A stretch of DNA of 64,000 bases, from the NCBI GenBank assembly GCA_028583405.1, contig JAPTMU010000091.1:495401-559400 (forward strand), read 5' to 3'. Of the stretch, positions 14,164-45,153 are shown one piece after another. The stretch is from Pogonophryne albipinna. Taxonomy: Eukaryota; Chordata; Actinopteri; Perciformes; Artedidraconidae. Positions within the stretch are counted from its first letter, which is position 1, and each line of letters begins with the position of its first letter. A program made the position numbers and the translations under genes. The notes under the pieces are model-generated. The model made no database searches and was not told the DNA's origin. It worked only from the letters and a program-made list of their open reading frames with translations.

Positions 14164-14292
14164 GTATGTTTAACAAATATTTAGGTTCAAGTACCGTAAA
14201 TCATTAGAGTGATATTCCCTGAGCAGTTTGCCTTGATAATGATGGAAGAGTACCCATTTGATTAACACAAGCTATGCTATTTATCTTTACAG

Positions 14293-15965
14293 AGGAGCCA
14301 ACACGATGAACCTGAGCAGTCCATTGATGCACTTAAACAAGCAGGGACTGTTCAGCAGGAGGTAGGTCAACTTTGTATTATGCTTTGAAAGCATTGGGGT
14401 ATGTTTATTGCAGTTTATATGTGCATTTTTATTTCACAGGAATTGGAGGAGAGTTATCTTCCACTAACAGCTGTGTGGTTCAGCAGTGCAATGTTGGTTG
14501 AGATGGACAAAATTAGTCCATCCCATCTTCCTGGCCCTGATGAGTGCACACCAAAACGGCAAAAGGTAATTTGTTTGTTGCTTTGTATGTTGGTTGATGC
14601 CCTATTATAAAATGTATCCTTCCTGACAAACTTTAAATGTATTACAGTGAGGACAACTTATACTGTCCATAAGGAGTTATTAGTGGAGGATTAATCATTT
14701 TGTTTTCCTTCCGTTAGAAAGCAAAGATGGAGCTGAAGCAGAGGGCTCCTGCCTCCAAGAGGACCCTGGCAAAGCGACAGGTTGTTCTTGTTTTCTTCTT
14801 TTTTAAAGGCAATATAGGACTTGTTTAAAACTAAGAAATTACACAAATATTGGTGGTGTTATTTATTCTCAAGTTGACTTAATTGTTTTGTTTTTTTAGG
14901 GGGAGGCAGCTCCCATGGTTGTGGAGGTGATTTTACGGCCACCTACCAGTAGAGGGACAGTTGCTGTGGAGCAGCAGGTCTGTGCTCTTTGTGTGAAGGA
15001 TGTGATATAATAATAATAATAATTTTGTATTAATAATTGTATAGCTTTCTATTATTTAGTTAAACGTTTGTGAAACAATTTAAGACCGTGTTTTTAGCAG
15101 TTTTTTTTATATATTAATTTTCTTTTAGGTGGAGCCATTGCCAGGAGTGGAGCCATTGCCAGGAGTGGAGCCATTGCCAGGGGTGGAGCCATTGCCCAGC
15201 GTAGAGCCATCACTGAGCGTAGAGCCATCACTGAGCATGGAGCCATCACCAAGCAACGAGCCATCACCCAGCGTGATAGTGGATGTTGATGATGACAACA
15301 GATGGAGAACAGGTAAGGGCTATGCTTGCATGTGTTCAGAAAAAGTGCAGTTGGCTGTTGTCGCAGGGACTGATGCGAGGTCTGCATCAGTTTCTGACGA
15401 TAGAATATCTGTTGCATGTTCTATAGCGGCTGCGATCAAACATTTGATTGCGCCTGTGTGTACGGCAGTACACACAGGCGCAGTACAGAGCAGTACAGAT
15501 ATCGATGCCATACGTGTTGCAGGGTCAAAGCTTAACTCGTTTGTATTAGGGGAAGCCCATACAATGAATGTAAAGCCAAAGAACTTGTGCAGGTTGGTTG
15601 AGCAGACCAGTGTGTTTGGACGTAAGTGGAACTTCAATATGGGCCTGCCAGTGTACGGCGAATATAATTTGTCTGAAGGGGATAAGGTATTGTCGGAGAA
15701 GCTGCTTGAACACTTATCCAGGGATGGCATGTGTCTGTTTAACCTAAATTCCACAGCCAGTGCAATTATTAAACACAATGACTGTACTGTGGTCGTTGAT
15801 TGTGGCACACGTGGTGCGTCTGGGTTAGCATCCAGTGTTGGCACATCTGTAGCCGTGTTCAACACATGCCCTAATGACCTGATGCTTTACATCAGGAGTC
15901 TCAAGAAGTCATTGAAAACAGAGGTTTTGCATAACAAGCCTTTCTGTGAAAGCAGCTCAAGTTAA
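14293..15965 (+). CDS. Helitron accessory ORF: spliced leader plus first C76-like protease domain
   Basis: Five exons, 14293-14361, 14440-14565, 14718-14780, 14900-14977 and 15129-15965. The first four are whole codon numbers (23, 42, 21, 26), all introns are phase 0 and all have good GT/AG sites. The last opens with five-residue repeats (EPLPGV, EPLPSV, EPSLSV, EPSPSN) and an acidic VDVDDDN. It continues into a domain whose end, MCLFNLNSTASAII then VVVDCGTRGASGLASSVGTS, parallels the second domain at 25078. Here the usual D-x-H motif reads D-C-G, so this copy is probably inactive. A donor-like GTAAGG at 15313 could splice out the domain. The frame ends at 15965, then shifts by one base for the next segment. 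Confidence 0.55.
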
Positions 15966-16184
15966 TTTGGAGACGGCTAGAGTCATTTCAGACAGTGATG
16001 GGGACACGTGTGTCAGGGGAATATTCAGTCAGGGTGACCAACGGTTTAAATATGCAGGACTTCAGTGCATGGCTGTAAGTTTGGTAGGCATAGCAAAACA
16101 CACAGTTGACAGCGTGTTTACATGGCGGTCCGACCACCTGGATAAAGTTGTTCTTGGTGACAATCTGTACACCTCCCTGCGTGA
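15966..16184 (+). CDS. N-terminal half of second C76-like protease domain (interrupted)
   Basis: Open from about 15949 in a frame shifted from the preceding exon. It reads DTCVRGIFSQGDQRFKYAGL, then QCMAVSLVGIAKHTVDSVFT and LDKVVLGDNLYTSLRD. YAGLQCMAV supplies the candidate catalytic Cys. The frame is cut at 16184 by the retrovirus and resumes after its target duplication at 25078 in the same codon. A free-standing protease of this type is known from herpesvirus large tegument proteins (peptidase C76); the assignment is by motif only. Confidence 0.55.
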
Positions 16185-16773
16185 TGTTAGTGTATTCTAG
16201 AACCCTGAAGGCAGGAGAGACTGAAAAGAGTCAAGGGAAGCTTATAAAAGTTAACAGCATTTAATTACACAAAAGATGCGGTGGTGTACAAAATGAAATG
16301 TGCGAGTGGAGGCGCTCTCCTCATCCGACCGGTCAGTCCAGGTCAGCAGGTAGAAAGAGGTCAATTCTTGGCTTGCTCTTCCTGTTGTCATCTGAGGTCT
16401 TCTCCTATTGGCCGGCGTCGTCGGGGGGCGGGTCCAATGCAATTCCTGCCTTTTTCCGTTGTTAAATTATATCATTCTGGTGTCTGTGGTCATTTAAACA
16501 TTCCCTAATAAACGTTATTCAGCGGTAATAAATGAGTGCTAAACCCAGTGTGCTCGGTGTACAACATCACATGTCATTTCACCTTTGATTCACGGTTTGA
16601 AAATGCAGCATTTCGCCACATGCTAATGCTAACCGGAAGTGAATAATTTTCAGAATAAAAGTATTAAGTTAATAGTTAGTGAACTTCCGGTTTTTCAGAA
16701 TAAAACGGATTTAAATTAAATTGTGTATTTAATTCAAATTACGCCATATCAACATTGATTTTAATTTCTAACA
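16185..16773 (-). repeat. ERV 3' LTR
   Basis: 589 bp, the 3' LTR in element orientation. It is collinear with 24485-25073 at a constant offset of 8300. The only difference noticed is GGTCAGCAGG here against GGTCCGCAGG there. Confidence 0.9.
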
Positions 16774-16786
16774 ATCCCTCCTTACA
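16774..16786 (-). other. Polypurine tract
   Basis: Read on the minus strand, TAAGGAGGGAT lies directly before the 3' LTR, as expected for the plus-strand primer of reverse transcription. Confidence 0.65.
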
Positions 16787-19700
16787 TACCCTTTAAGGTA
16801 TGTAAATAATATTGAAATCAATTAGTTCTTCATCCGAACATTGCATGGTACATAACTCATAAAAGTAAAAAAATACAAATAAGAATACATATTCATCATA
16901 AATATGAAGTTTTTCATTTGTGCATAACTTCTAGCTTAAACCTTTAATGTCACTTCGTAAAATAGCAGCAATTAGCTTGGTATGGAAAACGTTTAACTCC
17001 CTCCTTTCACATCATAAATCATCTTCTTACTGTATCTGGTGTAAAGGCACTTGTTCTTTTACAAAGTATAAGAAGGATTAAAATATCTGAAAATAGCTAA
17101 ATATTACTCCTTATTTACTTTTACTGTGTCTCTGGTGTAATGTATGAATCTCTGCTGGTTCTAGTAGATATAGTTCTCCCCATCCACATTCTTGTTGGTT
17201 GTGGGACAGAGAAATAATAATTCAGAACCTGCTGATATTTGAATCTTACTACTTGGCATATGTTACAAACAAAAAACATCTTCATGGTGAACTAAATAAA
17301 ATCCTTGTAATCTTTCTCAAATCTAAATATAACAATGAACTATTCCTGTTTGTGGTAAAGACACACACTAACGTTATGTAATACAATTTCATTATGGATT
17401 CAAAAACAACTAAAGTCATGATGATGTCAGAGTGAATGATTTCCTGAGTGTATCTGTCCTGTAAGGTACGTCATTCTCTGCTTGGATCGTGTGCAGCAAT
17501 CCCATCGATTCACCTGGCAATACGGCTTCTACCTGTCTATTATCAAGCATTCAATGCATACAGAATTCCAACATACTGTCATCAAATGTCTTTCTATTAT
17601 GAATTTAAATGTATATCCCCATAATGAAATAAACAATAAAGTCTATGGCTTTTACTTCTAATTCTTTAACAGGCTAGTTACAAGATGTTGTCTAAATTAA
17701 ATTCAGTTTAATTACATTACCATGTTTTAGCTTAACTTAACTGTAATATGTTCTTTCTACATTTCAAACCTCAGTTACTCTAATGTCTGTTAAAATATTA
17801 CAAAATTGTTTCATTATCACAGGTCAATTTCTTCGGTAATTACATCTCTCACAGTAGCCCCTTTGCCACTGCTTCTGTGTTACCCGTTATAATTCAATCA
17901 ATATTTAGAAACATGTCAACATTCATCAAACAGTATCTTATCCCCAGATATGGAGCAGGTTAATTATAAAACTACCATTCAATGCTCAGTTTGAACATCT
18001 GGGTTGGGGCGGAAGTTTTCTGTCAATCCTTAAAAGAAAAATTTTAATTGTATATTTTACAGCCATGTTGACATTATACATTCTACACACTCCCCCCTTT
18101 TTACACATGAACTCATGTGTAACAAAACCCTGGAATGGGGAGGGGGGAAAAAACTGTCAGGTAAATATTGGTTAGGGACATAGCAAACATTATTTACAAT
18201 ATGACATCCATTATTTTCCACAGTAAACACTTCAGTGAAAATAAGTGTTCCTCTCTGTCCTTCAGGCCTAAAAGAAACAGAGTCTTCAGATTTTAGTTTG
18301 AGTTTTACATTTGCAAACCGCCAACTCATGTGGGAGTAAAATATCATCAAGTAGATTAGAAACGGGTCACATGTGCGGTTTCCCCTTTTTGTGGAATTTT
18401 TAGGAAACCTCTCGTTTCCCTTGGAGCTCCAAAATAATATGTTAGTCCAAAAACATGCTTGGTTAGTTATTGTTTTAGAATCATGCAGTTACACTGATCA
18501 CATGCCGGCATTCATTCACACTCACACTGTCTGGTTGTCACGTCAGGTTTGGTCAGGTACACCCCAGAGTCAGTCATGGACAGTGCTTTTGTCACACTGT
18601 CAGTCAGGGTCAAAGGTCATTTGGTCTTGGTCTTTTGGCCATGTCGTGCTCTGCAGTCTTTTCAGAGATATTTCAGCATAGGCGGGTACCCTTTATCTAC
18701 AAAAATATATCATATGCGGAGTGCCATTCATTATTCATTCACGATTTCAACTATGATTTTCAAGATGGTTCTAACTTTTCATTGGGACTTCTGCCTCCCA
18801 CCTTTCCTGAAACTTGGTACAAAACTCACTTCCTTATAGTACTACTACTGCAATTCATTTACACCTAATTAGTATTAAAATGTCTAATAGATCTATTTCA
18901 GAAACTTGTGTACATCACTATTATCTTGTGTCAAACCATTACTAGGATCTGTGTAGCTCTGCTATGCATTTCATAGCTCATCTTCAATTCTGGTCCACCT
19001 AAAAAACAATGTTAAACTCTTTAGCAGTGTGTGGAACCTTGGGTGTCCGACCATGCAACAATTACTCCCTCCTTTATCAAGGATTTAAAAACAGAAGTCA
19101 TTTCATATTTCCATCTTAAAGCCCTCCTATGGTAATAACTATGGCACAATGGTGAAATCAATACTTTAGATTGGAATACTATATCTGGCTTGGCACTAGC
19201 TCTCCCTTTAACATTATCCATTCAAATAAAGATTTGTCTTATAGAGTGGTTCCTAAAACTATCCCTTTAATGGTGATCAATATTGTAACAAATGAGATCA
19301 CTACTTTATTCACACGTGAATAAAAATCTCTTAGAGAATATTTTGTTAACATGATGAAAAGATTGAAGAATATGGTTCTACTCTGTACTTCTAAGTCCAA
19401 AACACCCACTGCTTAAAGTCTAGTGAATATTTCCATCATGTCTCCCCCTTTATCCCAGTGTGTTTTAGGATGATTCTCATTTTACTTTAATAGTTTCCTC
19501 TTTACTGCTATTTTTAATTTACCAATTGATTAATTCATGGTTAATAAATATTTCTGTCTTTATGTATTTATGAAGTTAATTAAAGTTCTTTAAATGTGCG
19601 TTTTGTGAATAAGTGTGTTTATGTGTAAACTCACTCATTCCCGTTCTCCTTTTCTCCTCCCCTGGTTTTCTCAAGCCGTGACCCTGGCCTGCTCACTTCT

Positions 19701-20792
19701 AATCGACCATGCCAACTCCTCTGATTCTGTCTTCTCTTCAGTCCATCAGCTGTTGAATCCATCCGCTGTAACTCTTTTAGGCAGCCATTGGCCCAGTTAC
19801 ATCTGCAGCCCCCATCATGCCACTGTTGTTGCACTGCTTTGCATTTCATCTCCTCCTTTACAGTCTCTGCTGTTTTTATGGAGGGCGGATTCTGCTCTCA
19901 TGTCCCACACTTTGCTCTTGTGCCAAATCTCGTGGCTCAGCTTGGAACTTCATGCCCCGTCTGAGGGACTGATGAGAGTATCTCTCTGTATGTCAGCATG
20001 CTGTTTGGTTCTGGATGCCACAGGTGGAGATAGTTCTGGCTGCAGTTCTGGATGCAGTCTTGTTGTTGTTGTTGTTGTTTCAGCTCTGGTTCTCTGTCTG
20101 TTCGATGGAGAAGGAGGAGTCTCCTGTTGGGTTAGGTCTTTTGTCTGCTTGGAGGGTCGGGATCGTAGCCTTTCTGACTCAGAGGGGGAGTCCAGGTCTC
20201 GGGACGCATTACCTATAGGAAGTCTAGCACACTGAGGTTAAATAAATCCAACCCTTTCCACTCTGTCTTTTTCTAATCATACTATCTGTCTTAGTTGTTA
20301 AATGCCATCTAAACAACACAATTAATGTCTACTAATGATATTACAAAAACTCACTCTAAAAATTGTTTCATCCATTGTTACATATTTACCCAACATAACT
20401 CTTTCATATAATTGAAATACCCACATGTTTCAAGCATCACATATTCCACACACTACGAAAGAACATCACCATATTTTCTCCAATATTTTAAATCCCACTG
20501 TTACTTAGAACAATAGTAAACCTGCAGAGGACACTAATCAGATAACAGTAATGAAATTTGACTCAAGTGTAGGCCTGTGTCTACTTTCCATTATACTTAT
20601 TACTTTTGCTGAACATTTATTTATATTGTCTAAATTCCTTGTCTATGATGTGCAAACAGTTTGAGTGTAAAAATGTGTTTTTCTCAATGTATTTACACTC
20701 TACGGATTTTTGAGTTTACTCATCTCCTAGTGCTGTCGTTGTAAAAAATGTTCAATTCCTTATTGTTTTGTACCAGTTTTCCAAAATCAGCT
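16787..20792 (-). other. ERV 3' internal region, unassigned
   Basis: About 4 kb between the gag-integrase fusion and the 3' LTR, where env would lie. On the minus strand there are only short open stretches, including one of 97 codons at 18057-18350 and an Arg/Ser/Pro-rich open stretch around 19860-20235. No hydrophobic fusion peptide, CX6CC or transmembrane pattern was recognised. 17510-18060 is the part that differs most between the two copies. Confidence 0.5.
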
Positions 20793-23120
20793 CTAACTGC
20801 CGTGCCGTTTCAGGAAAGGTGGCGGTACGGCTACACAATGTGTAAATGGGTGCCAACATGTTCCTTTTTTAACTTTGATCCGGAGCGCATCTGCAGTGCG
20901 TTCTACAACTTCCCATGGTCCACTCCATACAGGTTGCAACGAGTTCATCTTGTGGATTTTTACATTTACCCAATCACCTGATCCAACAGAAATATTCGTC
21001 ATGGCCCTGGCATATGCTTCCGCATCAATATTTCTAATATCTAACACTGGTTCTCCTCTGTATTGTGAGGTGCTACCTTGTGGTGGATATTGCTGAGTGG
21101 GGCAATCTCTGGCCAGATGTCTACAATCACCACATATGAAGCAGCCATCATCCCTTCTTCCTCTCCATTGTCCCTTTTGCTGATGCTGTATGGGAGTGTA
21201 TACCTGTGCTTGCGGCTGTACTTGGGTAGGAAGATACACAGGTGTTTGCTGTTGAAGATACTGTGGTGCTTGTGGCTGTACTTGCGTAGGAAGATACACA
21301 GGTGTTTGCTGTTGAAGATACTGTGGTGCTTGTGGCTGTACTTGCGTAGGAAGATACACAGGTGTCTGCTGAACCTGGTTTTGTGGACATACACTTCCTC
21401 CTCCGCTTTGTTGAACTGTTGGAGGTGTCCGCCCTGCCTTCTCTGCTAGTATGGCCATCTGCTTTGTTGATTTCTTGTTTTTATTAGCTTTGGCATCTTT
21501 CTCAGCTACTTGCATCTTCAAAAGTCTTAGTTGTAGTGTTTTAATTTCTTCGTCATTTTCCCACTTTGTTGCCTGGTATTTCATATCGTGGTGAATGAGA
21601 TTTAGTCTCCATTCTTCAATGGGTTTAGCGACTAAACCCACCACGTCTCCCAGGCCTGCCTGCACTGATCGGGGAAGGGCTTTAATGACAGCATCCTTCC
21701 ACAACATTACAACAGCCGGAGAAACGTCATGCCGTTCTCCAGTGTAGTCCTCCCACAGTCCTTCACATCTCTTCAAGAAGGCATGCATGTCTTCCCCCGG
21801 TTCTTTTCTCAGGCTGTTGAGGGCATGTAAACTGCGTGTTGTCGGGTAGATGTGACGAATAGCAGCCCAATAATTCGACCTGATGTAGTTGAATGGAGTG
21901 TCATCTGGGTCATTTGTGCAATTGGCATCGGAATCTATTGTTCTCGCTTCAAGTCGTCCTTCAATCCGTCCGAGCAGGGCTCTCATGTCTCCCAAGCACA
22001 GGTGGTCTTGGACGGTGTACATCTCCAGATCATTCACCCACTTCTGACCTCCTTTCGTAAGTGGAGGTAGCTTTGACACTAATGCTTCCATGTCCCTGTG
22101 AGTCCATGATTGGTATTGAAATCCTCCTCTTCCAGCCGCTATCAATGGCATGGAGGTATGTGCACCGGTCTTGGTTATTTTAGTTGTCTTGGTTCTTCTA
22201 GTTTTGGAGCATGTCCCAGGGTAATGTTGCTCGTTTTCGTCGCTACTATTATTCTCAGGAGGAGATGCAAAACTGCGTTGTTGCTGTGACTGTTCATGGT
22301 ATGGGGAGTGTCTACTGGTTTCAGACTGTGTACTGCCGTCGTCATCTTCATCTCCCCGTCCTTTGGAATAGTCAGGAGAGTAGTTTGTTCGCCGTTTTCT
22401 TTGAGTTCTTCGTTCTTCTTGTTCTCTCCTTTGTCTATCTGCCATCATGTCCTGGAACCTTACATCTTCTTGTCGTCTTTCCGCCAGAAGTTGTTGGTAT
22501 TTATCTTCCTCCCTTTGTCTTTCTGCAATAATGTCATTATGGGCTTCAACTGCCTTCCGTCTTTCTTCAATAATGTCATTATGGGCTTCATCTGCCTTTC
22601 GTCTCTCTTCCAGTCCTCTGATGAGTTCTGCTTCCATTCTTCTGTTGAGCTCCTCTTCCATTCTTCTGTTGAGTTCTTCCATTCTTCTGTCGAGTTCCTC
22701 CATTACTGGCAGATCTTCTGCTGCTACCACATGTAAGCTGTTTGTCAATCCCTGGCTGGTATATTTTAGATGGAGAATCAGTTTTGCAACCATAACTTTT
22801 CTTTTTTCAGCTTTTTTCATAGCGTTTTTAGCAGGTCCATACCGAGGGGGTTGTCCGGCTTTGATCCATGCTTTTTCCTGTTGTAGGTATTTAGCATTCT
22901 CATGTTCAACTACAGCTTTTCTATGGGCTTCCGTTGGTCGAGGTTGATCATCTGCTGGAATCAATCCTCTCGTTTGCCACTGCTTGAACAGTTCCTCTAT
23001 TTGGTTCCATGTCTTCTGTCTTTTACTGGGAACTGTCCCAGCATCTGACCAGGTGTTTACTCTCTCCTTAATATCTGCAGTTGTGCCTGGCACAGCGAGT
23101 GCTCTTAACTCTGGCGACAT
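20793..23120 (-). CDS. gag: Gag polyprotein fused to integrase C-terminal domain
   Basis: About 775 codons; the ATG at 23118-23120 is chosen because the frame upstream has only GTG. In order: a basic N-terminal region; a long coiled coil (residues about 145-255: MEELDRRMEELNRR, then EERRKAVEAHNDII); a Ser/Lys-rich linker; a capsid-like region (about 340-590, with LPPLTKGGQKWVNDLE and LHALNSLRKEPGEDMHAFLK); three 20-residue repeats of the QTPVYLPTQVQPQ type; and one CCHC zinc knuckle (CX2CX4HX4C, CFICGDCRHLARDC). Straight after the knuckle comes a GDWVNVKIHK...VWSGPWEVVE segment resembling the C-terminal domain of gamma-type retroviral integrase. The pol between is missing, making an in-frame fusion. 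Gag would form particles; the fused tail has no catalytic core. Confidence 0.85.
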   Translation of the reverse strand: MSPELRALAVPGTTADIKERVNTWSDAGTVPSKRQKTWNQIEELFKQWQTRGLIPADDQPRPTEAHRKAVVEHENAKYLQQEKAWIKAGQPPRYGPAKNAMKKAEKRKVMVAKLILHLKYTSQGLTNSLHVVAAEDLPVMEELDRRMEELNRRMEEELNRRMEAELIRGLEERRKADEAHNDIIEERRKAVEAHNDIIAERQREEDKYQQLLAERRQEDVRFQDMMADRQRREQEERRTQRKRRTNYSPDYSKGRGDEDDDGSTQSETSRHSPYHEQSQQQRSFASPPENNSSDENEQHYPGTCSKTRRTKTTKITKTGAHTSMPLIAAGRGGFQYQSWTHRDMEALVSKLPPLTKGGQKWVNDLEMYTVQDHLCLGDMRALLGRIEGRLEARTIDSDANCTNDPDDTPFNYIRSNYWAAIRHIYPTTRSLHALNSLRKEPGEDMHAFLKRCEGLWEDYTGERHDVSPAVVMLWKDAVIKALPRSVQAGLGDVVGLVAKPIEEWRLNLIHHDMKYQATKWENDEEIKTLQLRLLKMQVAEKDAKANKNKKSTKQMAILAEKAGRTPPTVQQSGGGSVCPQNQVQQTPVYLPTQVQPQAPQYLQQQTPVYLPTQVQPQAPQYLQQQTPVYLPTQVQPQAQVYTPIQHQQKGQWRGRRDDGCFICGDCRHLARDCPTQQYPPQGSTSQYRGEPVLDIRNIDAEAYARAMTNISVGSGDWVNVKIHKMNSLQPVWSGPWEVVERTADALRIKVKKGTCWHPFTHCVAVPPPFLKRHGS
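21195..21372 (-). repeat. 60-bp tandem repeat within gag
   Basis: Three 60-bp units encode QTPVYLPTQVQPQAPQYLQQ and variants, upstream of the zinc knuckle in protein order reversed to DNA order. Units two and three are almost identical. Copy 2 shows several 1-base indels here. Confidence 0.85.
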
Positions 23121-24464
23121 GTTTCTTAAGTACACGGATAATATTATTAAGTTATCAAAAATGAATTACTAATCCTCTGAATAGTACACTTGTATTCTTT
23201 ATAAAGATATCTTATGCCATCTGAACTTAACTTTAAAATCTGGTAATTTTTTACAGAATTTGGAAAAATAAATGTAAATGTTGTAAAACTGAGATTGGAA
23301 AATCTAAATTAGACAAATTAAATTAAAATTTTGAAATTATGCAAATTTTAAAATCTGAATAAATAAATACAAATGAACAGTGTATGGTTTTGACTTTGTA
23401 ATATGAAAATAGGAATATGGTGGAAATCCAAATAAACCGTGTACACTCAAGTTTATGAAATTATGCAAATGTCATAAAATGTGTTAACTACAATACTTCA
23501 ATTCAAAGAAACCACATGTAATCTTTATCTGTGTGGTGAAGAATGTATTAACTGTAATACTTATTATGTCCGCTAGGGGAGCTGTTTTATTTGTAACTCC
23601 TCTCAAATGTATCAACTAGTACTTCCGGTTCATAAACCTACTTCCTGTTTATTTCCTCAAAATATAAAGTTCAAATTACTTTCTTTGAAAAGCATGAAAA
23701 ACAAAACAACTCAATCTACTCTCAACGTTTATCTACACCATCCCTGTGTATTTAATCAGTAGTTACCGGTTGTATCTTTACTCAAACTATTTCACCATCT
23801 AGTAATGCTAACTGGCTAGCTAACTAGCTTAGCAGTATAGCATTAACCACATGTGACTGGGGGAAGGGAACAATGGGAAAACTCAACATCTGCAGATAAA
23901 AAACCACACTGCTTGACAATACAAAACAACACAATCTTCATTTATCTTAGCTCTAAATTCTATAGATGCTGACCTTAAAAGCTGATCTCATACCAATCTT
24001 GTACACAATCGTTTCGGCTTAGAACATCACACAAAAATATACTTTTCGGCTTAAAAACTCCACACAATATACTTTATTAAACCAGACTACGCAGGTTTAA
24101 CACATCAAACATATAGACTAACATGAAAGGACCCAGTCCAGTGTAAAACAGATCAGGTCTGGTACCTACCCAGAGGTATTTAACACAATGTGGACCCAGT
24201 CCTATCCCAGATAAAATCTAGTGCCTCCCCAGAAGGTCTTAATACGATGTAATATTCACATTAATCGGGCGGCGGCGAAGATACAACAGAGACGAATAGA
24301 AACACTATATACAAACTCCACACCACTCGCAATCACCACGGAATTAAACAGGTAACTGTCTCACCTTTCGTTTTGGCCCAGCCAAAAACTCATTTTCTGC
24401 AGCCTAGTGTGATGCTAGTTAGCTTGCAGCCTTCCCCTTTCTTCCAGCTCTATCCCGCTTCAGG
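23121..24464 (-). other. ERV leader between primer site and gag
   Basis: 1.34 kb without a supported coding region on either strand; A/T-rich. Packaging and splice-donor functions would be expected here but no specific signal was identified. Confidence 0.5.
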
Positions 24465-24482
24465 GCCCACCCAGGGACGCCA
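24465..24482 (-). promoter_or_regulatory. Primer-binding site matching tRNA-Asn
   Basis: On the minus strand TGGCGTCCCTGGGTGGGC starts 2 nt after the 5' LTR. It is complementary to the 3' end of vertebrate tRNA-Asn(GUU), including the CCA tail, as I recall that tRNA. Copy 2 carries one mismatch (CCCAACCAGG on the + strand). Confidence 0.75.
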
Positions 24483-24484
24483 AA

Positions 24485-25073
24485 TGTTAGTGTATTCTAG
24501 AACCCTGAAGGCAGGAGAGACTGAAAAGAGTCAAGGGAAGCTTATAAAAGTTAACAGCATTTAATTACACAAAAGATGCGGTGGTGTACAAAATGAAATG
24601 TGCGAGTGGAGGCGCTCTCCTCATCCGACCGGTCAGTCCAGGTCCGCAGGTAGAAAGAGGTCAATTCTTGGCTTGCTCTTCCTGTTGTCATCTGAGGTCT
24701 TCTCCTATTGGCCGGCGTCGTCGGGGGGCGGGTCCAATGCAATTCCTGCCTTTTTCCGTTGTTAAATTATATCATTCTGGTGTCTGTGGTCATTTAAACA
24801 TTCCCTAATAAACGTTATTCAGCGGTAATAAATGAGTGCTAAACCCAGTGTGCTCGGTGTACAACATCACATGTCATTTCACCTTTGATTCACGGTTTGA
24901 AAATGCAGCATTTCGCCACATGCTAATGCTAACCGGAAGTGAATAATTTTCAGAATAAAAGTATTAAGTTAATAGTTAGTGAACTTCCGGTTTTTCAGAA
25001 TAAAACGGATTTAAATTAAATTGTGTATTTAATTCAAATTACGCCATATCAACATTGATTTTAATTTCTAACA
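24485..25073 (-). repeat. ERV 5' LTR
   Basis: 589 bp, begins TGTTAG and ends CTAACA on the + strand. The related but older solo copy at 34385-34950 shows the family has inserted here before. Confidence 0.9.
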
Positions 25074-25077
25074 GTGA

Positions 25078-25999
25078 CCAACAAGGTATCAGTGGCGGAT
25101 ACAAACTACTTTCGGTTCCAGATCTGCCCAAGGAGACCATTATCGACGGACAAAGATTTCTGTTTGAATACAGTGACTTTGTGTCTGGAGATGTGGTTGA
25201 GGGGGATCTCATTGATGAGTGTGTGCACACCACTCTAAAATACGGACTGGAAAGGATGTGTACTAACAATGACACATGCTTTCTGACAATGAATGGCGGC
25301 ACATGTGCCATCATTGGTCAAGATGGACACTACGCAGCGGTCGACTCCCATGCACGCAGTGCGTCTGGGATGAGCGATGGCGAGGGGCGTAGTGTTGTTT
25401 TGTATTTCAGAGGCCTTGAAAACGTGTTTGAATACATATGGACATTTGCAGCGTTCCTCAAGAAGTCTCAAAAACAGTTTGAGATCGCTGGTGTCCGAGT
25501 CACTCAAATAGGCCCAATAGAAAACAGTAATCTGTCTTTGGCTCCAAGAGTGACTCCCAAACCGACAGAGACTGATTTGGGTTGTAGTTCAGCTATTCAG
25601 TCCACACTTGGCTGCACCAACATTCAGATGGGTGCAAAGCGTAAGATTCGTAAGGGATCTTCTGCTTGCAAAAAAATAAAAAAGAGTGATGTTACCGCAG
25701 TTAATTCAGACGTTGTTTTTGTCAAAGAAGTAACAAGTGAACGACTGCAGTTTAATCCTCTTAGTAATCAACTTGCACAAGCTCTTTGTGACCAGTTACA
25801 TGTGCAGTCAGAGAAAGTAGATGTTGTGTCTACACAAATTGGTTTGTTAGGGGCTCCATGTCTCAATGACAAAATAGAGGGTGACGGGAACTGTTTCTTC
25901 AGAGCAGTGAGTCAAGCTGTGTGTGGTACACAAAGGCAGCACACAATAATTAGGCGTGCAGTGGTTCATCAAATGCAGAGCAACACTGGTGACTTGTGA
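25078..25999 (+). CDS. C-terminal half of C76-like protease domain plus OTU protease N-half
   Basis: Continues the frame cut at 16184. The first part, through CFLTMNGGTCAIIGQDGHYA, reaches AVDSHARSASGMSDGEGRSV. D-S-H matches the Asp/His pair of C76-type proteases, which with the Cys of GLQCMA completes a plausible catalytic set. A basic linker (AKRKIRKGSSACKKIKKS) follows, then LQFNPLSNQLAQALCDQLHV and the OTU signature KIEGDGNCFFRAVSQAVCG (catalytic Asp/Cys loop D-G-N-C). The frame stops at 25997-25999 and the OTU domain resumes one frame over. OTU proteases cleave ubiquitin chains. OTU domains accompany many fish Helitrons, consistent with the downstream Helitron domain. Confidence 0.7.
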
Positions 26000-26272
26000 G
26001 CGTATTTTGACCTCCTCCATGTCAGAATACCTCAGCACATCGAAAATGCGTGAGGTTGGCAGTTGGGCAACAGAATTAGAAATTCAAGCAGCAGATTGGT
26101 TTGGAGTTAATATATTCACATATTGTGATCCACGCTGGCTTAAATATAGTTGCGAGAACGGGCAGTTGTCTAATCAGGGGGTTTATTTGGAAAACTGCAA
26201 TGGTAACCATTATGAGACTGTTGTTGTTGTGGGTGTTGCAAAGTGGATACTTCGTGTTCAAGACTGTACAAT
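25986..26272 (+). pseudogene. OTU protease C-half (frameshifted)
   Basis: Continues the OTU domain in another frame: SEYLSTSKMREVGSWATELE, then IQAADWFGVNIFTYCDPRWL and VYLENCNGNHYETVVVV. N-H-Y supplies the catalytic His. The shift relative to 25078-25999 lies within a few bases of 25995, so the protein is broken here unless it is a sequencing error. Confidence 0.65.
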
Positions 26273-26339
26273 GTCAGACGGACAACTAGAGGCAAAAGGA
26301 GGGTTACGGAACAAACGCATGGTACATCGTCTGCTGGGG

Positions 26340-26808
26340 ACACAGATTGTGTGGAAAAGAGTGATGCAAGTAAAATCACTCTTAAATTTAATCCATTGTG
26401 CAATGAAGTGCAAAAAACACTTTGTAATATAGACTTTGAAAAGCAGGATGTGCAGGGACCTACAGTAACTAGGTGCTCAAATACACTTGTAATTGTGCAA
26501 TGCTTTCAAAAGAAAAAATATACTTGAAACACTGATAAAAATCATTTTGAGCCAGTGGTTTGTATCATACCTTATGATAAACAAAGGTGCTTTAAATTGT
26601 GTAAAGTGGGTGGTTCGTAAGAGACACGGTGTATGTGTAGCAGTGTTGATATCTGTACTGGGAAGGGTGGGGTTAAAAAGACTGCAGAGTGTTGCAAACA
26701 GCTGCAGTCGACAGATTTAAAAAAGAGATACAGGTCACACATTAAACTGTATTATAAAAGTGACACCATGTAGCAGCAAAGGATCAACAGGTTATCAAGA
26801 GAGTCAGG
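26340..26808 (+). pseudogene. Second, decayed OTU module and Lys/Tyr-rich region
   Basis: KITLKFNPLCNEVQKTLCNI parallels LQFNPLSNQLAQALCDQLHV before the first OTU domain. HFEPVVCIIPYDKQRCFKLC parallels the segment around its catalytic His, so a second module existed but has lost its centre. Further on, LKKRYRSHIKLYYKSD resembles the Lys/Tyr-rich repeats that precede the replication-helicase part of fish Helitrons. Several frame changes and stops are present. The circovirus insert begins at about 26810. Confidence 0.5.
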
Positions 26809-26814
26809 TTTTCA

Positions 26815-27117
26815 TCAGAGTGGAGGTTTTAGTTCATCATCATAATCAATCCACCCGTAGTTGATGGATGTGTCATCCTCACTACGGTTGAAAGTGGAGC
26901 TTTGCGCTGGTATAAATGACACAATACAGTTAATCTTGTAATAATCATATGCGACAGCCCCCATGAAGTCACTGAGTTTGAAGATCCACTGGTAGTTGGT
27001 ATCTGCTTTGGGCCCCACATCGAAGCCATCCATCTTGCGTAATACCACGTGATGTAGACCGTCTCTGCGCCTGCGCGGCGCCCTTCTCCGGGCTCTCATT
27101 CTCGGGCGGGAGATCAC
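26815..27117 (-). pseudogene. cap: Circovirus capsid, N-terminal part
   Basis: About 100 codons on the minus strand. It begins with an Arg-rich tract (RMRARRRAPRRRRDG), the nuclear-localisation and DNA-binding arm typical of circovirus capsids, followed by a beta-rich region with YQWIFKLSDFMGAVAYDYYK. It terminates at 26815 where the virus-host junction lies. The remainder of the gene is at 28350-28577. Role in the virus: single structural protein of the shell. Confidence 0.75.
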
Positions 27118-27171
27118 TGTCCTGCGCCGTGCTCCTCCTCTTTCTCTGGAACCTATAAGACAAAAAACGTT

Positions 27172-27239
27172 CCGAGGTTGCCGTTAGTATCTGGAACCAT
27201 GGCACCAGCACCATCATCCATCACCATGTCCAACCTCGG
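27172..27239. other. Candidate degenerate circovirus origin region
   Basis: CCGAGGTTG (27172-27180) and CAACCTCGG (27231-27239) are exact inverted repeats in the cap-rep intergenic region, enclosing TTAGTATCTGG. Circovirus origins have a stem-loop with a TAGTATTAC-like nonamer; TAGTAT is kept, the rest is not. The loop is too long for a normal origin, so this may be decayed or coincidental. Confidence 0.4.
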
Positions 27240-27274
27240 CACCTTGGAACCATGGCTCCAACTCGGTCTAAACC

Positions 27275-27299
27275 ATCATTTTTGCACAGCAAAAATGAT
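27275..27299. repeat. Perfect 11-bp hairpin over the rep start
   Basis: ATCATTTTTGC, loop ACA, GCAAAAATGAT. The right arm contains the rep ATG (27295-27297). Confidence 0.6.
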
Positions 27300-28215
27300 C
27301 ATCCCTCAACTAAAAGGGATAACCCCTTATAAGCGATGGTGTTTCACTCTGAATAATTACACCGAAGCTGATCTGGAGCCGATTAAATCCAAGCTAACCG
27401 AAGCTACATGCCTGTATGCTATCGTTGCTAAGGAGACCGGAGCTAACGGTACTCCGCATCTTCAGGGATTCATAAACCTGATAAAAAAGGTACGACTTTC
27501 ACAAGTAAAAGCCTTTGTAACTACCCGAGCCCACTTGGAGCAGGCGAAGGGCAGTGATGCCGACAATGAAAAGTACTGTTCTAAGGACGGAGATATTTAC
27601 CTAGCCATTGGTAAACAGTCAGCGTCTGGAAAGCGGACCGATCTCGATGCAGCCGTTGAGATTTTGAAAAATAACAGTGGGAACATGTTCGAACTAGCCA
27701 ACCAACTGCCGGCTGTCTACATTCGATATGGGCGTGGCTTCAACAACTGGGTGGATACGGCGCGAATCCAGAAGCCACGTGACTGGAAGACCAACGTCAT
27801 CGTCTACGTAGGTCCTCCAGGATGTGGAAAATCTCGCGCATGCGCAGACGCTTTCCCTGCCGTCGAGAACGTCTACTACTAAACCCGCGGGGAGTGGTGG
27901 GATGGCTACTCCGGACAGGAAACTGTCATAATGGATGACTTCTACGGCTGAATGAAGTATGATGAGATGTTACGAATCTGCGACTGCTACCCCCATCGTG
28001 TCCCTGTGAAAGGTGCCTTCATCCAGTTTATGGCTAAAACCCTGTGAATCATCTCCAACTCCCCCGTGGATCAGTGGTATAAATTCAACAAGTTCGACCC
28101 CGCTGCCCTCATGCGGCGGGTTAATGTGTACAAAATGTGGAATGGAGCCAACGACACCTTTGAGGAACTGAAAGACACACCAGCGTACAACCCAACTTTA
28201 CCGTATCATTTTTAA
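27295..28215 (+). pseudogene. rep: Circovirus replication-associated protein (Rep), three stops
   Basis: 306 codons from ATG 27295 to TAA 28213-28215, about the length of circovirus Rep. HUH endonuclease motifs: I CFTLNNYT, II TPHLQGF, III KYCSK (catalytic Tyr). Superfamily-3 helicase: Walker A GPPGCGKS, Walker B VIMDD, motif C IISNS. Rep nicks the origin and drives rolling-circle replication. In-frame stops lie at 27880-27882, 27949-27951 and 28045-28047. The frame is otherwise unshifted from start to end, which is remarkable for an old insertion. An alternative ATG at 27178 extends the frame upstream but does not match the family start. AATAAA follows the stop directly. Confidence 0.92.
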
Positions 28216-28349
28216 TAAAAATTGTCAAAGTTAAACATTACATCTCATGTCATTTTTATAACACATTGGTACGTTAAGGGAGCGAGCCGTTAGGCGAAGG
28301 GACCGATTACTCAGGCCGAAGGGCATGCTTGCACAGCGGGGAATCGAGA

Positions 28350-28577
28350 TTACTGTAAGGTTAGCAGACTCTTGAATTTCATCCAGGCTGTAATTCGAAC
28401 CATGTACGTTCTGGGCTCTGTTGCTGGTTCATGCCATACCTTGAGCCCGTAATGTAACACACTTTGTCCCTGTTCACTGTCTAACCAGTTACTCTTCCCC
28501 GCTTGTGCCCCACTGACAAGGTAGTACTTCGGCACGTAAGTACGGGTAAACCCCTGTTTACCCTTCCATTCCCTGGA
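28350..28577 (-). pseudogene. cap: Circovirus capsid, C-terminal part
   Basis: Minus-strand frame ending at 28350. It contains TSREWKGK, TRTYVPKYY, SVLHYGLKVW and YMVRITAWMKFKS. The HYGL...ITAW.KFKS ending resembles the last strand region of circovirus capsids. The gene is split from its N-terminal part by the viral rep, as expected if the circle was opened within cap. I cannot tell from the sequence whether any capsid codons were lost at the junction. Confidence 0.65.
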
Positions 28578-28599
28578 TGTTGAATGTCCGTAGTATGGT

Positions 28600-29208
28600 G
28601 GGACATTTGTGGGTGTCTTGAGCTTTTACACGACAGGCAACAGCATTGCATGTTTCAGGACACATGTCTGATGCCTGTTGATGTTGGACAGGAAGTGTTG
28701 GATCAGTATTTTGATAGTACATTACATGTCGCTCCAGCAGAGGGTAATAGTCCTGTGAGGCTGTGAGCAGACATTTCCAACAAAGCAAAATGCTTTCCTG
28801 TATTGCTCCCACTGGGCTTTAACACCTACCAAGATAACATTATCACGCTATTTTAATATGCGTGTTTTAAATGCTGATGTTAGGTTTGCACAAAATATAG
28901 AATACATTTTTTATGCTCAGTATTTGTCTGAGGTGCAACAGGTATTGTCCAGTGTGTCTATTGCATTGTGAAAAGGCAAAGCAGGCTTTCCATCCAAACC
29001 GATGGAAGATCATTTGTTGAATCAGGAAACCATAAGAAAACTGTTGCAATTTGATGATGGCTTTCGTTGACTCTCACCTATTAGAGTACTGCAGCATTTT
29101 GGCAGCGCGCACAGAATGACCTCCTAGCTTGTGTGCGTACCTGGTTTTGTTCATTCTCTTCGGCTGATCTTCGGTGGGCAAATCTACTCAACACTATTTT
29201 AAAACAGT
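28600..29208 (+). pseudogene. Helitron Rep/helicase N-terminal region (Helitron_like_N), decayed
   Basis: Reading across frames: LHVAPAEGNSPVRL, then DISNKAKCFPVLLPLGFNTY, then RYFNMRVLNADVRFAQNIEY, then IFYAQYLSEVQQVLSSVSIA and finally QNDLLACV and CSFSSADLRWANLLNTILKQ. This order matches the region preceding the Helitron nuclease in fish Helitron/Helentron proteins. At least three frame changes and several stops are present. It ends abruptly at 29208 where a LINE begins; the HUH nuclease and helicase parts are not in the window. It identifies the host element of the proteases and of the circovirus insert. Confidence 0.75.
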
Positions 29209-30905
29209 AAGGCAAGGCAAGTTTATTTATATAGCACCTTTCAACAAAAGGCAATTCAAAGTGCTTTACAAAAAAAACGAAAGACATTTAGAAAATGGCA
29301 TTTAAAATCAGTCATTAAAAAGAAAAGATAATAAAATAAACATTAAAAGAAAAAATACATGGATAAAAGTTACAGTGCAGTTTAAGATGTAAATAGTTCA
29401 ATTAAAAGCAGCGACAAAAAGAAAAGTCTTCTTGCTGGATTTGAAAGTAGTCAGAGTTGCAGCGGACCTGCAGGTTTCTGGGAGTTTGTTCCAGATATTT
29501 GGAGCATAATAACTGAACGCTGCTTCTCCATGTTTAGTTCTGACTCTGGGGACAGAAAGCTGACCAGTCCCTGAAGACCTGAGAGATCTGGATGGTTCAT
29601 CATTTAGCAGGAGGTCAGAAATGTATTTTGGGCCTAAACCATTCAGTGCTTTATAAACCAGCAGCAGTATTTTGAAATCTATTCTTTGACACACAGGAAG
29701 CCAGTGTAAAGACTTCAGAACAGGAGTGATGTGATCCACTTTCTTAGTGTTAGTGAGGACTCGAGCAGCGGCGTTCTGAATCAGCTGCAGCTTTCTAATA
29801 GATTTTTTAGTGAGACCTGTGAAGACACCATTGCAGTAGTCCAGTCTACTGAAGATAAAAGCATGGACAAGTTTTTCCAAATCCTGCTGTGACATTAGTC
29901 TTTTAATCCTAGATATGTTCTTTAGGTGATAGTAGGCTGATTTAGTAACTGTTTTAATGTGACTGTTGAAACTCAGGTCAGAGTGTCACGATTCTCTTGT
30001 TATGTCGTTTTGTAGTTTTGTATGTTTGGGTGTTTGCTGTCATGTTTTCCTCCCTGTTTATTGTCTGGTCCTTTTCCTTGTGTTTTTTCCTCCCGTCGTT
30101 AGTTCCCTGGTGTGTCTAAGTGTCTGATTGTGTTCACCTGTTGTCCTTGTGTTTCTCCTCCCCTGCCCAGCTGTTTCTCGTCCCGTGATTACCCCTCCCT
30201 GTATTTAGTCGTGTCTCTTCCTGTGTTCAGTGTTGGGTCGTCTTTCGTATGTGACTGAGTTCACCGGTGAGTGTTCTGTTTTGTCTATGTTATGTAGTTA
30301 TCCTTGAAATAAAGGTTTTTCACGTTAATCTGCATTTGGGTCCTGCTTGCTGCACACACCGTGACACAGAGTCCATGACTACACCTAGATTTCTGGCTTT
30401 ATCTGTTGTTTTGAACATTGCAGACTGAAGCTCAGCGCTAACTTTTATAAGTTCTGCCTTGGCTCCAAAAACCATTACCTCAGTTTTATCTTTGTTTAAT
30501 TGGAGAAAGTTCTGACACATCCAGTCATTGATTTGTTCAATGCACTTACTCAGTGTTTGAATTGGAGCATAGTCTCCTGGTGAAATTGTTATGTAAATTT
30601 GTGTGTCATCCGCATAGCTATGGTAACTTATTTTGTTGTTCTTCATTATCTGAGCCAGTGGTGGCATGTAGACGTTAAAGAGAAGAGGCCCCAAGATGGA
30701 GCCTTGAGGTACCCCACATGTCATATTTGTCAACTCAGATGTGTATTTACCTAAAGAAACAAAGTTGTTTCTGTCCTTTAAGTAGGATTCAAACCAATTT
30801 AGAACTGTTTCCGAAAGTCCCACCCAGTTTTCCAGTCGGTCTAGTAATATGTTGTGGTCAACAGTGTTGAACGCAGCACTGAGATCTAAGCAGCAGACTT
30901 CTAAA
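29209..30905 (-). mobile_element. L2/CR1-type LINE, 5'-truncated, with RT
   Basis: Minus strand. The 3' end (reverse of AAGGCAAGGCAAGTTTATTT) is at 29212. Reverse transcriptase at 30823-30370 reads GLSETVLNWFESYL, CGVPQGSILGPLLF and YADDTQIYI (catalytic D-D), then LNKDKTEVMVFG. The downstream part (29983-29398) reads FSRLDYCNGVFTGL, LLVYKALNGLGPKYI and FSYYAPNIWNKLP. A solo LTR at 29984-30366 splits the ORF. The endonuclease is missing. The element lies against the broken end of the Helitron. Confidence 0.85.
29984..30366. repeat. Solo LTR, 383 bp, inside the LINE
   Basis: Begins TGTCACG and ends CGTGACA, flanked by the 5-bp duplication CAGAG (29979-29983 and 30367-30371). An AATAAA is at 30308-30313. 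No internal retroelement sequence is present, so it is a solo LTR. Confidence 0.8.
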
Positions 30906-32913: not shown

Positions 32914-33920
32914 CTATTTTTCCGCTCCTGTGTGGACTCTCATGTGTGCCTTTAAACTATCACTCCGTGAAAATGCTTTCTTACAGACTGAGCAGCTGTG
33001 TGGTTTCTCTCCTGTGTGGACTCTCATGTGTTTCTTTACATTTGCACTATGTGAAAAAGCTTTCTTACAGACTGAGCAGCTGTGTGCTTTCTCTCCTGTG
33101 TGGACTTTCATGTGGTTCCTTAAACTATCACTCCGTGAAAAAGCTTTCTTACAGACTGAGCAGCTGTGTGCTTTCTCTCCTGTGTGGACTCTCATGTGTT
33201 TCTTTAAATCTGCACTCTGTGAAAAAGCTTTCTTACAGACTGAGCAGCTGAATGGTTTCTCTCCTGTGTGGACTCTCATGTGTTTATTTAAATGTGCACT
33301 CTGTGAAAAAGCTTTCTTACAGACTGAGCAGCTGTGTGGTTTCTCTCCTGTGTGGACTCTCGTGTGCTCCTTTAAATGTCCACTCTGTGAAAAAGCTTTC
33401 TTACAGACTGAGCAGCTGAATGGTTTATTTTCAGCACTAGGTTGTGGATCACTGACAGATTCATGTCTATTTTTCAGTGAGTTTGAGTCTGATGCAGGTT
33501 CTCTGGCCTCCTTCCAATCAGCACTGTCTTCATTGCCAGGTTCAGAAGAGTCTCCAGTGTCGTCCTCAGTCTTTGGTTGTAAACTGCTCTCTGGATCTGA
33601 GCTCCTGGCTGGTTCTGGTCCTCGACAGTCATCTCCATCAGCTTCTGTTTCCATGTGTTCAGTTTGTCTTTGATGAGGCTGAGAGGACTGAGGTTTCTCT
33701 TTATCATCTTCACTCTTCACAGGGTCAGGAGTGAAAGTGGACTTGGTGATCTCAGCCTCCTCCAGCTCCTGAAGCTGCTCTCCCTCCTGACTGATCCTGA
33801 GTTCCTCCTGTTCCTGCTTAATGTGTGGGGGGGGCACTGGGTCCTCCGGGTCCAGACTGGTGCTCCACTCCTGCTGGTCAGGGAGAAACTCTTCTTTAAC
33901 CACCACCAGCAGCTGGACAT
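32914..33920 (-). CDS. FiNZ-type C2H2 zinc-finger protein, exon 2
   Basis: Exon 2 of a fish-specific zinc-finger gene. The acceptor TTTCCTGCAG ends at 33921 and joins in phase to the exon at 39932-40124. An acidic linker (DVQLLVVVKEEFLPDQQEWS, then HIKQEQEELRISQEGEQLQE) is followed by six tandem C2H2 fingers of consensus SCSVCKKAFSQS-x-L-x-x-HMRVHTGEK. Finger contact positions differ between units (GHLKE, AHLNK, ADLKK, DSLRN, ANVKK, DSLKA), as in arrays diversifying for new DNA targets. Likely a nuclear DNA-binding repressor. FiNZ proteins have been proposed to silence transposons, and this one sits in a transposon-dense region. Confidence 0.88.
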
Positions 33921-34384
33921 CTGCAGGAAACAGGAAACACACTGTCAGAACAAACTGTTAAGTGTTAGCATTTAAAAATCTAATCACCATTACAATGGGA
34001 GATATTTTGCAGCCCTAATTAATGCCTTTGTTTTTATATTTTCACATTATCTTTCTTAGTACCACCTATTGTGTATTTGTGTTGGCTCAATTCACCTTAT
34101 GTAGGCCCGCCCCTTTCCACTTCCAGTTAAAAATGAAAACGGTTTTTCTTTTTCCGGCGTAGCACTAGCTGCAATGTAAACAATGAATTGTATTTGGGAT
34201 CGTTCACAGATACACTACGCCTACAGTTAGTGCTGCGTACCGGTACCCCGAACCGGTACTGGACTTGTAAAAAGTTTCGGTTCAAGTCCGGTTAAAACCG
34301 GAACGTCGGGAACCGGTACTTGGACTCGCAAAAAAACTAGCACTTACGTATATTCTCCTTCTTGTTCTAAACCATCTAAAACAT

Positions 34385-43545: not shown

Positions 43546-44389
43546 TATCTTGATGAGCCTGAAGGGTAAACACCAGGTTTACTAATCTACCCGCACAATT
43601 TCTCTGGTGTCAGAATGTCTTGCGATGTTGGTAAATTGTTCAAAAACACCATTTCATTAAGGGTTAAAAGTTTACCGTTACTGTGACATATCAGTATAGC
43701 CACGGAGGATAGTTTGTGTGTTTCATTCCCATGCATCAAGGTTATTTTCATGTATGTAATTGTTTTTCCTGCACAGTGTAGAGTCTTGTTGTGATTAGAG
43801 GGATACAGGTATTTCATTAAAAAAACGTGCTCCCTGGAGAATAGCTACAGCATTTATATCACAATTTAATCGGAGCTGATCACAACTTGTCATGTCATCC
43901 AGTCATGTCGATGAGCGTTCGGGCTGTGAATAAACACTTGTGTTTTACTTTTAGGCTGTCTGAAGGTATGGACAGCTATCAAAGCTACTATACATCACAT
44001 TAAGAACGATGTACAAATGAAAGTCGGACACAAATATATCATTTAAATGATTTATTCAAGTTTGCAATATTTTGAACAGGCATCCACACAGTCACCTACT
44101 TTGTAATGTTCGATACCTCCCTGTAAGCGTCACGATATCCACCTCTCACCCACAACCTCACATACGAGTACTGAATGTGCATCAAAATGATCTTAGGAAG
44201 GCAGATATAGCAAAAGATGAACGTAAACGACAAACGAGGCGATCGACATGGTAAGTCAACAATGGGTCCTCAATGTACACGCCCCGGATTCCTATGACGA
44301 AAATAATATAATGTCGCAAGTTGTCATGACTCACGTTATACTGCAACACCGTTACCGAATAAAATGTGGAACGAACAACTGGTGATATC

Positions 44390-45153
44390 TTCTTCTTCTC
44401 TTGTTTTTGGCGGATTGCAAACAACTTAAAAAGGTGCCTACCGCCACCTACTGTACATGAGTATGAATCATCAAATCATTCTCTTTAACCTATGATCTAA
44501 ACAAAATTAAATTAAAATCAATCAATAAAACCATGAAATAAATAAAACAAAAATACAAATCTATGTTCTTTCCTGACCTAATGTTAAATTATTTTTCCTA
44601 CCCCAGTTTCACTCAAGAATTTAAACAATGCCTTTCTGGTAGCTCTTACTCCCTCTCCTTTTGTTCCCAAAACAGCAACCACACTCCATTCCCTCTCTGC
44701 CTCTAAAACTTTAGCCTTTAATTGTTCTCTTTCCGCTTTATAGATGTCACAATGTAACAAGATATGTTCTACATCTACTTTTACTGCACAGTTCCCACAC
44801 TTGTTACTGTCACTTTTCCCCATGATATACAGCGTACTATTCAAAGCCGTGTGATTTATTCTGAGTCTAGCCATCATGATTTCCTCCCTTCCGTTTCTTT
44901 CTTTATGAATATAATTGTATTTGTACTTTGTGATAGTCCTTGCCTTTCTGGTCTTTCTCCCACCTTTTCTGCCAGATCTCCATCCCTTTTTTCTTAATAA
45001 CTGCTTTTCCTTCTCCAAGTTGAACTGGTAATGTTATTTGCTTTTGTAGTGCACTTTTTGCTAATTTATCAGCACACTCGTTCCCTTTCACCCCCTCATG
45101 TGCACTCATTCCCTTTCACCCCCTCATGTGCAGGCACCCAGCAGAACTGCAGA
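44390..45153 (-). mobile_element. I/Nimb-type LINE fragment with RNase H end
   Basis: Minus strand. SAHEGVKGNECADKLAKSAL is the end of an RNase H domain (H...N-x-x-A-D). It is followed after a frame change by MARLRINHTALNSTLYIMGK, C-x2-C...H-x4-C (CGNCAVKVDVEHILLHC) and the 3'UTR, with a GGTGCCTACCGCCACCTACTG block near the tail. RNase H plus a CCHC-like end fits I-clade LINEs. It is cut by the assembly gap at 45154. Confidence 0.7.

What the first reader, a model, noticed from the sequence alone, without database searches (positions are those of the whole stretch)
26810..28600. Complete circovirus genome captured inside a Helitron, opened within the capsid gene
The Rep frame is full length. 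The capsid start lies to its left and the capsid end to its right, both on the minus strand. Only a single circular genome linearised inside cap and integrated once gives this arrangement. Helitron-family coding sequence flanks both sides. Most described circoviral insertions are rep fragments (general knowledge), so a whole permuted genome is unusual. The breakpoint is not at the origin, which argues against Rep-mediated nicking at the origin as the joining step and for repair of a linearised circle.
Basis: partly seen in the sequence, partly recalled or inferred. Interest (0 to 1): 0.92.

Follow-up and report, generated by a model that had tools for sequence, protein, structure and literature searches.

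The report
Unit-length circovirus fossil inside a Helentron
A vertebrate (probably fish) chromosome carries the decayed remains of one whole small circular virus, broken open inside its coat-protein gene and pasted into an older jumping gene, and that stretch was later copied together with its chromosomal surroundings.

Summary
Window ~26804-28618 (1.8 kb) is an endogenous circoviral element of about one genome length. Rep (+) is covered end to end by homology, but its frame is broken by a stop that all four genomic copies share. The capsid's N-terminal part lies left of Rep and its C-terminal part right, both on -, with no overlap (Pfam positions 2-99 and 124-222): one circle opened inside cap, away from the cap/rep intergenic region. 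Both flanks are one Helentron reading frame (residues up to ~493 on the left, from 984 on the right, of a 2482-aa open relative in the same genome). The 1.2-1.6 kb lying between these points in five virus-free copies is absent here and no target-site duplication is seen: end-joining of linear viral DNA into a broken Helentron is the best fit. "Captured by a Helitron" is not supported: the host Helentron is truncated, and the copies share DNA outside it, so they spread by segmental duplication. All Rep (4) and capsid (7) matches found in the 1.07-Gb genome lie in these four copies, consistent with one integration. Complete tandem and Rep-Cap endogenous circoviruses are already reported; this is a well-resolved new member.

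The parts
26804..28618 (.). circoviral insert, about 1815 bp (1831 bp if the left edge is put at 26788)
   Evidence: edges set by alignment to virus-free Helentron copies; corresponding insert from 26788 is 1830 bp in L005 and 1879 bp in L006
27256..28212 (+). rep, homologous over its length but with a premature stop (open frame 27058-27882)
26818..27183 (-). capsid gene, N-terminal part (Circo_capsid positions 2-99)
   Evidence: L005 and L006 carry 29 more bases here and a 142-aa frame
28350..28618 (-). capsid gene, C-terminal part and its stop (Circo_capsid positions 124-222)
27176..27199 (+). possible decayed origin stem-loop between cap and rep (weak)
   Evidence: seen by eye; identical in L005, L006 and L007; fold not better than shuffles, z 0.59, 142 of 200; origin motif absent from the insert
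14203..16184 (+). Helentron, left (5') portion as present in the window, before the ERV
25074..26803 (+). Helentron, left flank of the insert, with OTU protease coding region
   Evidence: Pfam OTU E 1.6e-9 in the L005 copy, OTU weak in the window (6.9e-4, below cut-off)
28619..29212 (+). Helentron, right flank of the insert (residues 984-1193 of the C1 relative, start of the Rep-like domain)
29213..30889 (-). LINE-like element with reverse transcriptase, inserted in the Helentron after the virus flank, itself cut by a 382-bp insertion at 29985-30366
   Evidence: RVT_1; in L005/L006 the Helentron resumes beyond it for 120 bp
16184..25073 (-). endogenous retrovirus with 590-bp LTRs (1 difference) and 4-bp target duplication, present in the window copy and its near copy, absent from L005 and L006
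6985..30761 (+). block carrying the whole locus, present again about 39.1 kb downstream (from window 46154 on, past the window end)

Best explanation
A circular circovirus genome (most likely its double-stranded replicative form) was cut at one point inside cap, and the linear molecule was joined into a break in an old Helentron copy in the germ line; about 1.2-1.6 kb of Helentron coding sequence was lost at the join. The virus was then dead DNA: rep acquired a stop, a LINE landed next to it, and the surrounding chromosomal block was duplicated to at least three places, one of which took an endogenous retrovirus and was duplicated again. Shown: permuted order, non-overlapping capsid halves, edges, missing Helentron segment, shared stop, shared outside flanks. 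Inferred: the double-stranded form, the joining pathway, that the Helentron loss happened at integration and not before, and the order of LINE and virus.
For: Capsid halves at 2-99 and 124-222 on either side of rep (same order in L005 and L006). Insert of 1815-1879 bp, against contig lengths of 1853, 1906 and 1960 listed for Werosea, bream and bee-eater circovirus. Right edge at 28619 in 6 of the 7 fetched loci that were compared (L034-L039; L040 has no match there) and left edge at 26787 in 5 of them (L034-L038; L039 has its own gap). 1467, 1467, 1209, 1199 and 1631 bp lie between these points in the five (about 45 bp less if the left edge is 26803). Of 7 virus-free places of the left flank, 6 have the right flank 1.2-1.6 kb on in the list (one, on C3, matches the left flank only in part), none close by; the seventh (C4:7113417) has no right flank in that list. 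Edges identical in the copies compared, L005, L006 and L007. Viral_Rep 4 places (4 candidates scored) and Circo_capsid 7 places (8 scored), all within the four copies. Outside-Helentron sequence shared on both sides between L005 and L006 blocks, and on the left by the window.
Against: The virus-free Helentrons are 5-13% different from the host copy at DNA level, so the true parent copy, and whether it already had the gap, is not seen. The left edge is uncertain by about 16 bp. Substitutions between blocks are higher outside the Helentron (mostly 1.3-1.9%, range 0.2-4.2% for collinear pieces) than across the insert and its Helentron flanks (0.5-0.9%), which a single clean duplication does not predict; gene conversion or alignment noise in repeats would have to explain it. 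No integration intermediate can be seen.
Confidence: 0.8

Rival explanations
1. Helentron capture: the transposon took up the viral DNA as filler during its own transposition or repair and then moved it.
For: The insert lies within Helentron coding sequence and replaces part of it; related Helentrons in this genome are young, with long fragments 98.4-99.9% identical and one 2482-aa open frame. Helentrons are said to capture gene fragments (PMC4067079, passages).
Against: Host Helentron has no match beyond its Rep-like domain start in the L005 and L006 surroundings; L005 and L006 blocks match on both sides outside the Helentron and the window on the left; no virus-bearing Helentron elsewhere.
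Confidence: 0.1
2. Remnant of a tandem array of circovirus genomes, trimmed by deletions to one unit, like the tandem genomes reported in carp and golden-line barbel.
For: Such arrays exist in fish (PMC6372831, passages).
Against: The two capsid parts do not overlap in the profile and the insert is one genome long; no second viral piece in the genome outside the four copies.
Confidence: 0.07
3. Rep-mediated joining at the viral origin, with later rearrangement.
For: Origin nicking is a known Rep activity (recalled); not seen here.
Against: The break is in cap, about 370 bp from the possible origin stem-loop; all copies have the same edges.
Confidence: 0.02
4. Assembly artefact or contaminating virus.
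For: Three of four copies lie on one 692-kb contig, and two of these differ at 1 of 4111 bases, so that pair could be an assembly duplicate.
Against: The same junctions stand on a 44.9-Mb contig (C6) with a different surrounding and private differences; the rep stop is shared.
Confidence: 0.01

Closest known systems
Endogenous circoviral elements of cyprinid fish (carp, golden-line barbel), PMC6372831
   Same: whole circovirus genomes fixed in fish chromosomes
   Different: those are several complete genomes in tandem; here one unit, permuted in cap, in a Helentron
Rep-Cap elements of vipers, tinamou and parrots (Table 1 of PMC6372831)
   Same: both genes present
   Different: their exact breakpoints and target elements were not seen by me
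LINE-1-associated circoviral elements of carnivores (PMC6372831, PMC11089739)
   Same: viral fossil inside or beside a transposable element, several copies per genome
   Different: rep only there and amplified apparently with LINE-1; here whole genome, Helentron target, copies by block duplication
Rep-like protein of the icefish Chaenocephalus aceratus (P0001)
   Same: closest Rep, 77% over 264 residues, sister in the tree with support 100/99
   Different: known to me only as a predicted protein on a 120-kb contig; its surroundings were not available
Helentrons with OTU and tegument-like protease domains (PMC9741609, PMC4067079)
   Same: OTU, Helitron_like_N, PIF1 and endonuclease domains in the virus-free relatives; Herpes_teg_N in proteins matching the left flank
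   Different: the host copy is a broken fragment holding a virus

Membership tests
Endogenous circoviral element (genus Circovirus-like) | Rep with Viral_Rep domain | tested here: met
   E 1.2e-22, 80.4 bits against cut-off 26
Endogenous circoviral element (genus Circovirus-like) | capsid of the Circo_capsid family on the opposite strand | tested here: met
   37.3 and 41 bits against cut-off 36.2 for the two parts
Endogenous circoviral element (genus Circovirus-like) | groups with circoviruses in a Rep tree | tested here: met
   42-row tree, in an 8-row set with support 99/98 that holds Werosea circovirus and the Kryptolebias element
Endogenous circoviral element (genus Circovirus-like) | joined to host DNA on both sides | tested here: met
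   Helentron on both sides in all four copies
Endogenous circoviral element (genus Circovirus-like) | origin stem-loop with conserved nonanucleotide | tested here: not met
   motif as recalled absent from the insert; fold not better than shuffles; a decayed version is possible; not decisive for a fossil
Endogenous circoviral element (genus Circovirus-like) | fixed in the population or shared by related species | not testable with these tools
   no reads and no relatives of this host held
Helentron (flanking element) | Rep-helicase protein with PIF1 and C-terminal endonuclease | tested here: met
   in the virus-free C1 relative: Helitron_like_N 1069-1262, PIF1 1784-1984, Exo_endo_phos 2282-2470; the host copy keeps only residues ~6-493 and 984 to about 1230 of it
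Helentron (flanking element) | terminal repeats and 3' hairpin, T-rich target | not tested
   ends not examined; 3' end absent from the host copy
Helitron gene capture with mobilisation | captured DNA found in copies at unrelated sites bounded by Helitron ends | tested here: not met
   all four virus-bearing copies share outside flanks
Tandem endogenous circovirus array | more than one copy of some viral segment side by side | tested here: not met
   no overlap of capsid parts

The most novel reading that the evidence does not exclude
A Helentron break repaired with a whole circovirus circle: a transposon with its own rolling-circle nuclease acting, through its breaks, as a natural trap for replicating rolling-circle virus DNA, giving unit-length viral fossils opened at random points and not at the origin.
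Probability: 0.12. Interest if true: 0.6.

Novelty: new member of a known kind. Interest (0 to 1): 0.42.

Why it matters
Most circoviral fossils are rep fragments (highlights and passages of PMC6372831). A whole unit with both edges resolved against virus-free copies of the target gives one clean look at how a small circular virus enters a chromosome without an integrase: break away from the origin, no target duplication, target loss. It also records a capsid of an extinct fish-clade circovirus, and shows that a circoviral fossil can multiply by segmental duplication and not only by a transposon.

Tried and rejected
Rfam and tRNA scans of the window gave nothing. Repeat search for terminal repeats around the insert gave no pair joining both edges. 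PDB searches with capsid pieces: no significant match. Protein search with the N-terminal capsid piece: none. The origin motif and fold gave no support. I first read the right flank as LINE only, because Pfam saw no Helitron domain near it; the genome search with P0121 corrected this. I first thought the rep lesions might be private to each copy; one search shows the stop is common to all four. I first set the left edge at 26788; one search moved it to about 26804 (12-nt match, reached by 1 of 5000 shuffles). A selection test on rep was not meaningful: 14 copy-private substitutions in all (7, 4 and 3). Host species was not established: the nearest relatives of both Rep and Helentron protein in the protein search are from the icefish Chaenocephalus aceratus, but that Rep is not among the four places of this genome. 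A DNA search of the right flank and a count of Helitron_like_N in the genome did not complete.

Full report
What was checked. The window is part of a 692-kb contig (C668) of an unnamed 1.07-Gb genome in 861 contigs.

The virus. A plus-strand frame of 274 codons ends at 27882. It matches Viral_Rep (E 1.2e-22) and porcine circovirus 2 Rep residues 10-188 of 314 (E 2.1e-41; that the entry is PCV2 is my recollection). Public circovirus Reps align in this same frame through the stop to 28212, e.g. residues 7-305 of 305 for Werosea circovirus (61%) and 4-295 of 303 for bee-eater circovirus (57%). Rep is thus covered over its length but broken; L005 and L006 also change frame, and the stop is in all four copies. 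In a 42-row tree the window Rep is sister to a predicted protein of the icefish Chaenocephalus aceratus (support 100/99), within a set of 8 rows with Werosea circovirus and the Kryptolebias element (99/98). The protein search listed the best 120 of 1273 matches; 41 of these 120 went into the tree.

The capsid. Minus-strand frame 26818-27183 matches Circo_capsid positions 2-99 (E 4.8e-9), and 28353-28625 matches 124-222 (E 3.4e-10), both above the curated cut-off. L005 and L006 show the same order (the right part in L006 reaches only 205 and is below cut-off). The parts do not overlap. In L005 the left frame is open to within a few bases of the insert edge, and the right frame likewise in the window. 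One circle opened inside cap explains this most simply.

The edges and the target. A 52-residue piece of the right flank (P0121) has 18 matches in the genome: four at the virus copies and six in open frames of 689 to 2482 aa, with further weaker ones. The 2482-aa frame on C1 has OTU, DUF6570, Helitron_like_N, PIF1 and endonuclease domains, the make-up described for Helentrons (PMC4067079 and PMC9741609, passages read). The window's left flank matches its residues 6 to 493 and the right flank 984 to 1193. Of seven fetched loci compared, six (L034-L039) resume at window 28619 and five (L034-L038) break off at 26787. A further 12-nt match after a 29-nt gap puts the left edge at about 26804. Between the two points these five hold 1467, 1467, 1209, 1199 and 1631 bp that the virus site lacks. 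Of 7 virus-free places of the left flank, 6 pair with a right flank 1.2-1.6 kb away, one of them only partly matched; the seventh has none in the list. None shows the gap without virus. No target-site duplication is visible.

The copies. Viral_Rep gives 4 places and Circo_capsid 7 in the genome, all in four copies: C6:6.54 Mb and C668 at 333, 522 (window) and 561 kb; counts are lower bounds by the tool's own statement. The edges are the same in L005, L006 and L007, apart from an extra 20 bases just inside the left edge in L006; the window and L007 lack 29 bases of cap. Over the insert the window differs from L005 at 15 of 1772 and from L006 at 17 of 1800 bases, L005 from L006 at 12 of 1800, and the window from its near copy at 0 of 1802. 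The L005 and L006 blocks match collinearly from about 313 to 342 kb of C668, beyond the Helentron on both sides; the window shares the left outside flank with both (1.9% and 1.3% substitutions), while on the right its match to them ends at 30889 inside the LINE. So the copies are segmental duplications. Against a single simple duplication stands the higher divergence outside (mostly 1.3-1.9%) than inside (0.5-0.9%). At a few substitutions per billion years and site (recalled order of magnitude for fish), the duplications would be around a million years old; the integration is older by an unknown amount, since the stop was already there.

Mechanism. Joining of a linear circovirus molecule at a chromosomal break, with loss of Helentron sequence, fits best (0.8). 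The pathway itself is inferred. Helentron capture (0.1) lacks a moved copy with Helentron ends. A trimmed tandem array (0.07) lacks overlap. Origin-based joining (0.02) and artefact (0.01) are unlikely.

What is known. PMC6372831 (passages) lists Rep-Cap elements in cyprinids, vipers, tinamou and parrots, complete tandem genomes in carp and golden-line barbel, and LINE-1-linked expansion in carnivores. A search for 'endogenous circovir' with 'Helitron' held one paper, whose passages discuss Helitrons only as relatives of Rep proteins (PMC3198968); 'circovirus' with 'Helitron' and 'transposable element' held eight, of which I saw passages of two (PMC3198968, PMC4778049) and the listing of the rest. 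Within those searches I found no report of a circovirus inside a Helentron; subscription papers are mostly not in that library.

Verdict. A real, well-resolved endogenous circovirus of one genome length. New member of a known kind, with an unusual target and clear edges.

Noticed in passing
window 16184-25073: Very young endogenous retrovirus: two 590-bp LTRs with one difference, 4-bp target duplication, MLV-type integrase C-terminal match (below cut-off), inserted into the Helentron before the latest block duplication.
   Followed up: partly
window 6985-30761 and 46154-64000 (continuing past the window): Block repeated about 39.1 kb apart, 99.2% identical over 17.9 kb in the window and 99.86% over 8.3 kb across its end; either recent segmental duplication or an assembly duplicate.
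   Followed up: partly
L042:247-7692 (+): Helentron with an uninterrupted 2482-aa frame (OTU, DUF6570, Helitron_like_N, PIF1, endonuclease); sibling copies 98.4-99.9% identical over long stretches, so this family moved recently.
   Followed up: partly
window 1865-3085 (+): 407-aa frame with a Tet_JBP oxygenase domain match at residues 279-329 (E 3.7e-13).
   Followed up: no
window 32917-33957 (-): 347-aa C2H2 zinc-finger frame with an 84-bp tandem unit (6 copies), best PDB match ZNF568.
   Followed up: no
window 45001-46225: Low-G+C stretch (22% over 44001-46000) open in all six frames for 346-391 codons; looks like a simple-sequence array.
   Followed up: no
L005/L006 blocks against each other: Substitutions are about twice as frequent in the shared sequence outside the Helentron as in the Helentron-virus part; gene conversion is one possible reason.
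   Followed up: partly
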